This document shows, piece by piece, positions 20,497 to 60,966 of a DNA stretch of 64,000 bases. Each line of letters starts with the position of its first letter. The stretch's first letter is position 1. The position numbers were made by a program, and so were the translations under genes. The notes under the pieces are model-generated. The model was not told the origin of the DNA. It saw nothing but the letters and a program-made list of their open reading frames with translations, and searched no databases. The DNA comes from Sulfurimonas sp. (GTDB lineage: Bacteria; Campylobacterota; Campylobacteria; Campylobacterales; Sulfurimonadaceae). The stretch covers positions 186,001-250,000 of the forward strand of contig NZ_JAQTLY010000001.1 in the NCBI RefSeq assembly GCF_028714655.1. The letters run 5' to 3'.

Positions 20497-20516
20497 AGGC
20501 ACTCTAAAGAGTGCCT
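20497..20516. terminator. 9-bp-stem hairpin between msbA and the small peptide gene
   Basis: AGGCACTCT (20497-20505) and AGAGTGCCT (20508-20516) form a perfect stem with a 2-base gap. It lies 4 bp after the msbA stop and, on the other strand, 3 bp after the stop of the small peptide ORF. Neither side has a clean T run, so it may be a processing or stability hairpin rather than a true terminator. A GCTTAGG/CCTAAGC outer pair on the minus strand extends it. Confidence 0.5.
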
Positions 20517-20519
20517 AAG

Positions 20520-20579
20520 CTAACATAACCGACTTGCAAAAATGCAAAGTAGAGTTATTGTGAGTATCAGCTTTTCCAT
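20520..20579 (-). CDS. Candidate 19-aa hydrophobic type I toxin-like peptide
   Basis: ATG at 20579 opens a 20-codon frame giving MEKLILTITLLCIFASRLC, a single hydrophobic helix with a basic residue at each end. A strong Shine-Dalgarno (AGGAGGAG, 20594-20587) lies 7 bases upstream, which is rare for chance ORFs this short. The last residues Ala-Ser-Arg-Leu-Cys match the end of the peptide at 60859 (Ala-Glu-Arg-Leu-Tyr). Size and composition are like Ibs and other type I toxins that damage the inner membrane. It lies downstream of a strong promoter and a structured, terminated leader (20681-20612). No homologue was searched; the call rests on sequence pattern. Confidence 0.6.
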   Translation of the reverse strand: MEKLILTITLLCIFASRLC

Positions 20580-20611
20580 TTAAGGACTCCTCCTGTTGGT
20601 TTTTGGAGGGC

Positions 20612-20681
20612 AAAAAAAAAGGTTGAGGCTCATGACTTCCCCAACCTTTGCCGCTCCGTTAAACCAACAAGCGATACTCAC
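20612..20681 (-). ncRNA. Terminated leader RNA complementary to the peptide translation start
   Basis: A transcript from the promoter at 20716-20688 would start near 20681 with GUGAGUAUC. It meets an intrinsic terminator: stem AAGGTTGGGG (20648-20639) with CCTCAACCTT (20628-20619), then nine T (20620-20612). The leader's 5' bases (20682-20673) are complementary over 10 bp to codons 4-7 of the peptide ORF (20559-20568). Bases 20669-20661 are complementary over 9 bp to 20602-20594, next to the Shine-Dalgarno. The RNA could therefore act as an antitoxin in cis or in trans. It lacks SRP and 6S signatures. Confidence 0.55.
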
Positions 20682-20687
20682 AGAAAA

Positions 20688-20716
20688 ATTATAACATAAA
20701 AGGTAAACTTTATCAA
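20688..20716 (-). promoter_or_regulatory. Near-consensus sigma-70 promoter for the leader/peptide transcript
   Basis: On the minus strand TTGATA (20716-20711) and TATAAT (20693-20688) are spaced by 17 bp, one base from full consensus. The predicted start is about 7 bases on, near 20681, exactly at the beginning of the sequence complementary to the peptide ORF. No other gene is within reach of this promoter on that strand except the small peptide ORF. Confidence 0.72.
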
Positions 20717-60511: not shown

Positions 60512-60645
60512 TTTTTTTGCGTAAGTAACTAGAATTAAAATAGCAACGCATTTTCTGCGTTGTTGCGTTCGTCAGATACTACAGTATCCTTCCTCACACA
60601 CGCCTTGAAACTGCATCACTCTTTTAATTCACTCAAAAATTATTA

Positions 60646-60736
60646 AGATTGCCGCGTTTGTCATTGCGAGCGAAGCGCGGCAATCTCTCTATCCAATACT
60701 GCCGCGTCACTCCGTTTCTTGCAGTGACTCTCTTTC
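60646..60736. repeat. AGATTGC...GCAATCT dispersed element
   Basis: AGATTGCCGCGTTTGTCATT to CGAAGCGCGGCAATCT is a compact copy, followed by a degraded half (CTGCCGCGTCACTCC). Before it, 60512-60645 has only a GCAACGCA...TGCGTTG hairpin (near 60551-60570), probably a terminator for the gene ending at 60511, and no coding sequence. Confidence 0.75.
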
Positions 60737-60767: not shown

Positions 60768-60773
60768 TATAAT
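60768..60773 (+). promoter_or_regulatory. -10 element for the second small peptide transcript
   Basis: TATAAT at 60768-60773 preceded by TTTTAGT. The -35 region is weak (no TTGACA-like hexamer at 16-18 bp). The predicted start is near 60780, giving an untranslated leader of about 80 bases before the peptide ATG. The same TATAAT-based start is seen in the related locus at 20693. Confidence 0.55.
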
Positions 60774-60858
60774 TTCAGTTCTAGTCGGCGGTTATGATGT
60801 TTTGATTGTATTGTGAGGTGTAAGGTGGGACAGGGTCAGCCTTTAACAAGGAGTAACA

Positions 60859-60915
60859 ATGCGTCTCATCGTAATTGTTATGATTGTTTTGCTTTTGGCA
60901 GAACGATTATATTAA
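60859..60915 (+). CDS. Candidate 18-aa hydrophobic type I toxin-like peptide
   Basis: ATG at 60859 gives MRLIVIVMIVLLLAERLY, then TAA. Size and composition are close to the Ibs type I toxins of E. coli (18-19 residues, one Leu/Ile/Val helix). AAGGAG (60848-60853) lies 5 bases before the ATG. The peptide shares the pattern (K/R)LI...A-x-R-L-(C/Y)-stop with the peptide at 20520-20579. The leader is structured; UGGGACA (60826-60832) is complementary to UGUCCCA (60945-60951) after the stop, so 5' and 3' ends can pair. An antisense promoter faces it at 60966. Confidence 0.6.
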   Translation: MRLIVIVMIVLLLAERLY

Positions 60916-60921
60916 AAGCTT

Positions 60922-60943
60922 ATAGAGAGTTCCCGCTCTCTAT
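60922..60943. terminator. 8-bp-stem hairpin after the second peptide gene
   Basis: ATAGAGAG (60922-60929) and CTCTCTAT (60936-60943) with loop TTCCCG. On the plus strand it is followed by TTTG; on the minus strand by AAGCTTTT. It can serve as a terminator in both directions and lies 6 bases after the peptide stop, as the hairpin in the first locus does. Confidence 0.6.
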
Positions 60944-60960
60944 TTGTCCCAACTAGTAAA

Positions 60961-60966
60961 ATTATA
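60961..60966 (-). promoter_or_regulatory. -10 for a candidate antisense RNA opposite the small peptide gene
   Basis: TATAAT on the minus strand (60966-60961) preceded by TGTGT. A transcript would start near 60954, read AGTTGGGACAAATAGAGAG and could stop at the hairpin 60943-60922 or continue through the peptide gene. No convincing -35 is seen, so activity is uncertain. If real, this RNA is complementary to the 3' end of the peptide mRNA. Confidence 0.45.

What the first reader, a model, noticed from the sequence alone, without database searches (positions are those of the whole stretch)
60768..60966. A second, related small-peptide locus with 5'-3' pairing and a facing promoter
MRLIVIVMIVLLLAERLY at 60859-60915 aligns without gaps to residues 2-19 of the peptide at 20520-20579, sharing Leu-Ile near the start and Ala-x-Arg-Leu at the end. 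The leader UGGGACA can pair with UGUCCCA after the stop, as in known type I toxin mRNAs whose ends pair. A minus-strand TATAAT faces the gene and could give an antisense RNA. Two dispersed members in one 64-kb window suggest a multi-copy family in the genome.
Basis: partly seen in the sequence, partly recalled or inferred. Interest (0 to 1): 0.75.

Follow-up and report, generated by a model that had tools for sequence, protein, structure and literature searches.

The report
New Sulfurimonas/Sulfurovum type I toxin-antitoxin family
The tiny gene encodes an 18-residue membrane peptide inside a repeated ~200-bp element, found in many copies in the bacteria Sulfurimonas and Sulfurovum, whose messenger RNA is folded shut end to end and faced by an antisense promoter, so it is very probably a new family of RNA-silenced self-toxin genes.

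Summary
The ORF, the complementary 5'/3' blocks and the minus-strand TATAAT are real. DNA and RNA-model searches turned the single locus into a family. There are three copies in this genome. Strong matches occur in 27 of 135 Sulfurimonas genomes and in Sulfurovum (up to 12 copies, some in tandem), and nowhere else among 397 genomes of the phylum. In 64 intact copies the ORF encodes 18-20 residues, hydrophobic core, ending [RK]x[YF], with purifying selection in frame. Over 52 non-redundant copies the mRNA fold covaries strongly (159 double-changed cells against 57 in shuffles). Its 5' end CUAGUUGG pairs with its 3' end CCAACUAG, its start codon is sequestered, and a 3' hairpin is maintained. 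An antisense -10 at near-fixed spacing is perfect TATAAT in 61 of 63. It works like H. pylori aapA/IsoA and encodes an Ibs-like peptide, but matches neither family by the features tested. Toxicity and both transcripts remain untested. Several copies sit beside a RAYT transposase, a lead on how they spread.

The parts
60768..60773 (+). sense -10 TATAAT (toxin mRNA promoter); predicted start near 60779-60781
   Evidence: sequence; a 5- or 6-of-6 match in 51 of 63 members, most often (37 of 63) at one spacing from the core
60781..60788 (+). 5' end CUAGUCGG, pairs with 60949-60956 (long-distance interaction; one C-A mismatch in this copy)
   Evidence: covariation UA:27/CG:21 and CG:27/UA:16 at two of its pairs; whole structure 0/500 shuffles; 86% paired against 14-36% when slid
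60789..60796 (+). CGGUUAUG, pairs with the codon 4-7 region of the ORF (60870-60877)
   Evidence: consensus fold of 52 members
60808..60813 (+). GUAUUG, pairs with CAAUGC (60857-60862) and so buries the start codon
   Evidence: codon-2 position covaries GC:37/UA:6
60825..60840 (+). near-invariant leader block GTGGGACAGGGTYAGC of unknown role
60840..60853 (+). CCUU (60840-60843) facing AAGG of the Shine-Dalgarno AAGGAG (60848-60853): local SD-masking hairpin
   Evidence: folds in the 12 members printed
60859..60915 (+). toxin-like ORF, MRLIVIVMIVLLLAERLY, 18 aa
   Evidence: 64 intact copies of 18-20 aa; second codon position fixed as T in the core; pN/pS 0.53 in frame against 0.77 and 1.62 in the other frames
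60922..60943 (+). 3' hairpin AUAGAGAG-uucccg-CUCUCUAU
   Evidence: all six pairs of its outer helix have compensatory changes
60945..60951 (+). UGUCCCA, complementary to leader UGGGACA (60826-60832)
   Evidence: nearly invariant, no compensation on the mRNA; UGCCCCA in 9 of 64
60949..60956 (+). 3' partner CCAACUAG of the 5' end
60961..60966 (-). antisense -10 TATAAT (extended TGTTATAAT), predicted start near 60953-60956
   Evidence: 6/6 TATAAT in 61 of 63 members, 5/6 in 2, hexamer at 10-12 nt by the count; 4 of 63 perfect in shuffles
60820..60955 (-). predicted antisense RNA (antitoxin); extent inferred, covers ORF, SD and leader
   Evidence: promoter position; antisense fold closes by UUGGGACA:UGUCCCA; the 3' end is not shown

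Best explanation
This is a type I toxin-antitoxin module of a new family in Sulfurimonas and Sulfurovum. A weaker plus-strand promoter makes a ~175-nt mRNA whose 5' end pairs with its 3' end. In that closed form the start codon lies in a helix and the SD faces a local anti-SD, so the full-length mRNA is not translated. An antisense RNA from the stronger, facing promoter covers the 3' end, ORF, SD and leader, anneals to the mRNA and keeps it silent or has it degraded. When antisense supply stops, or the 3' end is trimmed, the remaining mRNA opens and makes a single-helix membrane peptide that damages the cell's own membrane. Shown here: the family, coding selection, conserved and covarying mRNA structure, both -10 elements. 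Inferred: both transcripts, silencing by annealing, activation by trimming, toxicity.
For: Family and copy number. Peptide conservation with purifying selection. Covarying mRNA fold; G-U/A-C asymmetry favours the plus-strand RNA as the folded molecule in the 3' hairpin (65 against 11), the end helix (28 against 11) and the start-codon helix (73 against 4, inflated by the frequent U-G at the start codon). Antisense -10 at near-fixed spacing. Tandem same-strand copies (G415:C16, G084:C45, G156:C22). Absence from syntenic relatives in an otherwise conserved gene neighbourhood. Mechanistic precedent in H. pylori aapA/IsoA: 5'-3' LDI, SD-masking hairpins, 3' trimming (PMC6733600).
Against: No transcript, toxicity or antisense repression data exist here. 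No canonical terminator was found on either strand and the sigma-70 scan (needs a -35) finds nothing, so RNA ends are guesses. Family members are related, which inflates covariation counts. No match to a curated toxin family.
Confidence: 0.85

Rival explanations
1. A structured regulatory RNA with a short membrane peptide that is a benign regulator or leader peptide rather than a toxin.
For: Nothing here tests toxicity; the RNA fold is the best supported feature.
Against: Dispersed and tandem multi-copy insertion without a fixed downstream gene in the loci looked at, and a -10 within one base of the consensus on the antisense strand of every intact copy measured, are hard to explain for an attenuator or a housekeeping peptide.
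Confidence: 0.1
2. A nucleotide-level mobile repeat (REP/MITE-like): the inverted ends CTAGTTGG..CCAACTAG with their -10 sequences are transposase sites and the ORF is a passenger.
For: Ends form an inverted repeat; several copies are adjacent to a RAYT gene (Y1_Tnp) within REP-rich stretches.
Against: Coding selection in frame, G-U-biased covariation of internal helices that only an RNA needs, most copies not near a RAYT. It is compatible with a toxin-antitoxin that also hitch-hikes.
Confidence: 0.04
3. Chance: a short hydrophobic ORF with incidental complementarity.
For: Short hydrophobic ORFs and TATAAT are common in AT-rich DNA.
Against: 64 intact copies with the same anatomy; model E-values down to 1e-41 (the five copies the model was built from match by construction, the others do not).
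Confidence: 0.01

Closest known systems
aapA/IsoA type I toxin-antitoxin of Helicobacter pylori
   Same: Same phylum; several chromosomal copies; 5'-3' long-distance interaction of the toxin mRNA, SD-masking hairpins, cis-antisense RNA (PMC6733600).
   Different: AapA is 30 aa (PMC6733600, PMC8309996) with indispensable C-terminal Lys-Arg (PMC10537873 abstract); here 18-20 aa ending [RK]x[YF]. Here the antisense -10 lies beyond the 3' end of the gene, not in the ORF, and the antisense RNA would span the whole gene (IsoA3 is 80 nt, PMC6733600). No strong model hit outside Sulfurimonas and one other family among 397 genomes of the phylum.
Ibs/Sib (ibsC/SibC) of Escherichia coli
   Same: 19-aa single-helix hydrophobic toxin held down by an RNA antitoxin (PMC8309996); dispersed repeats with the antisense RNA opposite the gene (from memory).
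   Different: No Pfam Ibs_toxin match in this genome or in the 20-aa homologues; no Rfam match; different C terminus (from memory); no similar DNA in E. coli genomes.
The 20.5-kb peptide family of the same window
   Same: 19-aa hydrophobic peptide, structured leader, multi-copy in Sulfurimonas.
   Different: Different peptide consensus, leader and fold; no covariance-model match.

Membership tests
Type I toxin-antitoxin (general) | short hydrophobic peptide ORF under coding selection | tested here: met
Type I toxin-antitoxin (general) | antisense RNA encoded opposite the toxin mRNA | tested here: inconclusive
   antisense -10 conserved in all members counted; the RNA itself is not shown
Type I toxin-antitoxin (general) | peptide is toxic and the antisense RNA neutralises it | not testable with these tools
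   needs expression experiments
aapA/IsoA | 5'-3' long-distance interaction in the toxin mRNA | tested here: met
   (by covariation, not by probing)
aapA/IsoA | AapA peptide (about 30 aa, C-terminal Lys-Arg) | tested here: not met
   18-20 aa, ends [RK]x[YF]
aapA/IsoA | activation by 3'-end trimming | not testable with these tools
   inferred by analogy only
Ibs/Sib | Pfam PF13956 Ibs_toxin match | tested here: not met
Ibs/Sib | match to an RNA family of Rfam (Sib RNA included, if held) | tested here: not met

The most novel reading that the evidence does not exclude
A toxin-antitoxin element that spreads with a RAYT/REP system: the ~200-bp element, with inverted, promoter-bearing ends, lies beside RAYT genes at repeated spacings (about 155 bp upstream of the gene in two genomes, about 50-70 bp downstream in four loci), so that a domesticated transposase and a self-silenced toxin maintain each other. 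In addition the same 3' block is used twice: in the mRNA it pairs with the mRNA's own 5' end, while in the antisense RNA its complement pairs with the complement of the leader.
Probability: 0.15. Interest if true: 0.75.

Novelty: new member of a known kind. Interest (0 to 1): 0.55.

Why it matters
[quoted passage not shown] The library searched had no paper on one in Sulfurimonas or Sulfurovum. This family comes with enough natural sequence variation to support the mRNA structure by covariation. It suggests that end-to-end mRNA closure, known from H. pylori, is also used by unrelated peptides in free-living relatives. It gives a ready covariance model for annotation.

Tried and rejected
Pfam and NCBIfam scans of the peptide (22-aa and 20-aa forms): no family. 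Rfam at both thresholds: none (SNORD47 at E 0.34 is chance). Plasmids, phages, viral contigs, E. coli genomes: none. Kinship of the two window peptides: rejected. Precise insertion borders at the window site: relatives lack the element between the same two genes, but intergenic divergence hides the exact junction. The first try at the flank comparison failed on a naming bug. Structure prediction was not run: the peptide is below the 30-aa limit.

Full report
Observation. The 18-codon ORF (60859-60915), its SD, the two complementary blocks UGGGACA/UGUCCCA and a minus-strand TATAAT at 60966-60961 are all in the sequence. The plus-strand RNA 60779-60966 folds at -59.6 kcal/mol against -40.4 for shuffles, z -4.45, none of 200 as low.

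Family. A DNA search of the window's own genome gives two more copies, 87% and 76% identical over essentially the whole 203 bp, and copies in two further genomes of the genus. A covariance model built from these five finds strong matches (E < 1e-20) in 27 of 135 genomes of the genus. In a draw of 397 genomes from 68 genera of the phylum the only other strong matches are in two genomes of one other family. Within that family copies number up to 12 in one genome. Nothing appears in viral contigs, plasmids or phages. Tandem same-strand copies occur (G415:C16 three within 800 bp; G084:C45; G156:C22).

Peptide. 64 intact copies encode 18-20 aa. The last residue is Tyr in 62 and Phe in 2, and the last three are mostly RLY, KAY or KVY; mean hydropathy of residues 4-14 averages 3.7. 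The second codon position is T in practically every sequence through the core while first and third positions vary. pN/pS is 0.53 in frame (19-aa set) and 0.77 and 1.62 in the other two frames. This is selection for a hydrophobic helix.

RNA structure. On 52 non-redundant copies a structure of four helices has 90.0% of cells paired, 159 cells with changes on both sides (shuffles 57, 0/500) and a covariation score of 0.398 (shuffles 0.226; slid versions 0.05-0.12). The helices are (i) the mRNA 5' end with its 3' end (UA:27/CG:21 and CG:27/UA:16 at single pairs), (ii) GUAUUG with CAAUGC, which buries the start codon and covaries with codon 2, and (iii-iv) the 3' hairpin. The consensus fold adds the pairing of 5' CGRUUAUG with the codon 4-7 region and a hairpin in the second half of the ORF with compensatory changes. 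That may explain why the AATTGTTAT stretch is nearly fixed even at third positions. G-U exceeds A-C on the plus strand (28:11 end helix; 73:4 start-codon helix, which includes a frequent U-G at the start codon; 65:11 for the 3' hairpin folds), so the plus-strand RNA is the folded molecule. Since the copies are related, shuffle counts are not probabilities; the slid controls and the strand asymmetry are the safer arguments.

UGGGACA:UGUCCCA is nearly invariant and shows no compensatory change. In nine copies the 3' block is UGCCCCA: an A-C clash on the mRNA, but a G-U pair if the antisense RNA pairs its own 5' end with the complement of the leader. One copy shows the reverse. A fold of the antisense strand closes through exactly this pairing. 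I therefore assign this inverted repeat to the antisense RNA, with moderate confidence; the nine copies lie in three genomes of one family, so few independent events may be involved.

Antisense. The facing -10 is perfect in 61 of 63 copies and 5/6 in two, always 10-12 nt from the core; shuffles give 4 perfect of 63. The sense -10 is weaker (24 perfect, 27 at 5/6). The imbalance fits an antitoxin RNA made in excess.

Context. In relatives the gene pair around the window copy (164-aa ORF and pgpA) is kept without the element; in G021, for example, about 37 bp stand where the window has about 388. The element is thus an accessory insertion. Just upstream lies a REP-like repeat with about 40 matches in the genome. 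In seven other loci an intact or decayed RAYT gene (Y1_Tnp) lies about 50 to 560 bp from a family member, with GGTGTCAGGCAC repeats around most of them.

Mechanism. By analogy with aapA/IsoA, where full-length mRNA is inert through a 5'-3' interaction and becomes active after 3' trimming (PMC6733600), I propose closed full-length mRNA, local SD masking by CCUU:AAGG while it is being made, annealing to the antisense RNA, and a membrane-active peptide when silencing fails. The structural steps are supported by sequence evolution; transcription, silencing and toxicity are inferred.

Classification. It works like aapA/IsoA and encodes an Ibs-like peptide. It is not filed in either family because the peptide features tested were not met. 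It is a new family of a known kind. No paper in the library searched mentions a type I toxin together with Sulfurimonas, or a toxin-antitoxin with antisense RNA together with Sulfurovum; T1TAdb itself could not be queried, so prior listing there is not excluded.

Noticed in passing
window 20500-20690 (-): A separate multi-copy family: 19-aa peptide M[DEN]KLxxTxLLMCIFAPLLx, very stable fold (z -6.8), an internal terminator-like hairpin with T9, SD AGGAGGAG complementary to CTCCTCCT downstream; matches in 28 of 135 Sulfurimonas genomes, 3 places in this one.
   Followed up: partly
L003:208-960, L080:2047-2790, L085, L040, L079, L086, L067: RAYT transposase genes (Y1_Tnp), intact or decayed, directly beside members of the toxin family, in one case flanked by them on both sides, most with GGTGTCAGGCAC repeats.
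   Followed up: partly
L093:1379-1506, L094:1448-1579, L096:1448-1579: A third 18-aa peptide family (MKLFIVLMVLIVLAERLY, MNFILIVVVLMVLARPLY) with GTG start, another leader, a 3' hairpin and a -10-like TACAAT on the opposite strand.
   Followed up: no
window 60646-60690: REP-like GTCATTGCGAGCGAAGCGCGGCAATCTC repeat, about 40 matches in the genome.
   Followed up: no
window 60565-60630: About 66 bp, 98% identical in two other Sulfurimonas genomes where the neighbouring coding DNA is only 76-77% identical; two more places in this genome match the stretch 60533-60630.
   Followed up: no
L056:1501-1646, L054:850-954, L055:1501-1614, L108:1666-1805: Decayed copies; L056 keeps both ends but has lost leader and ORF.
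   Followed up: no
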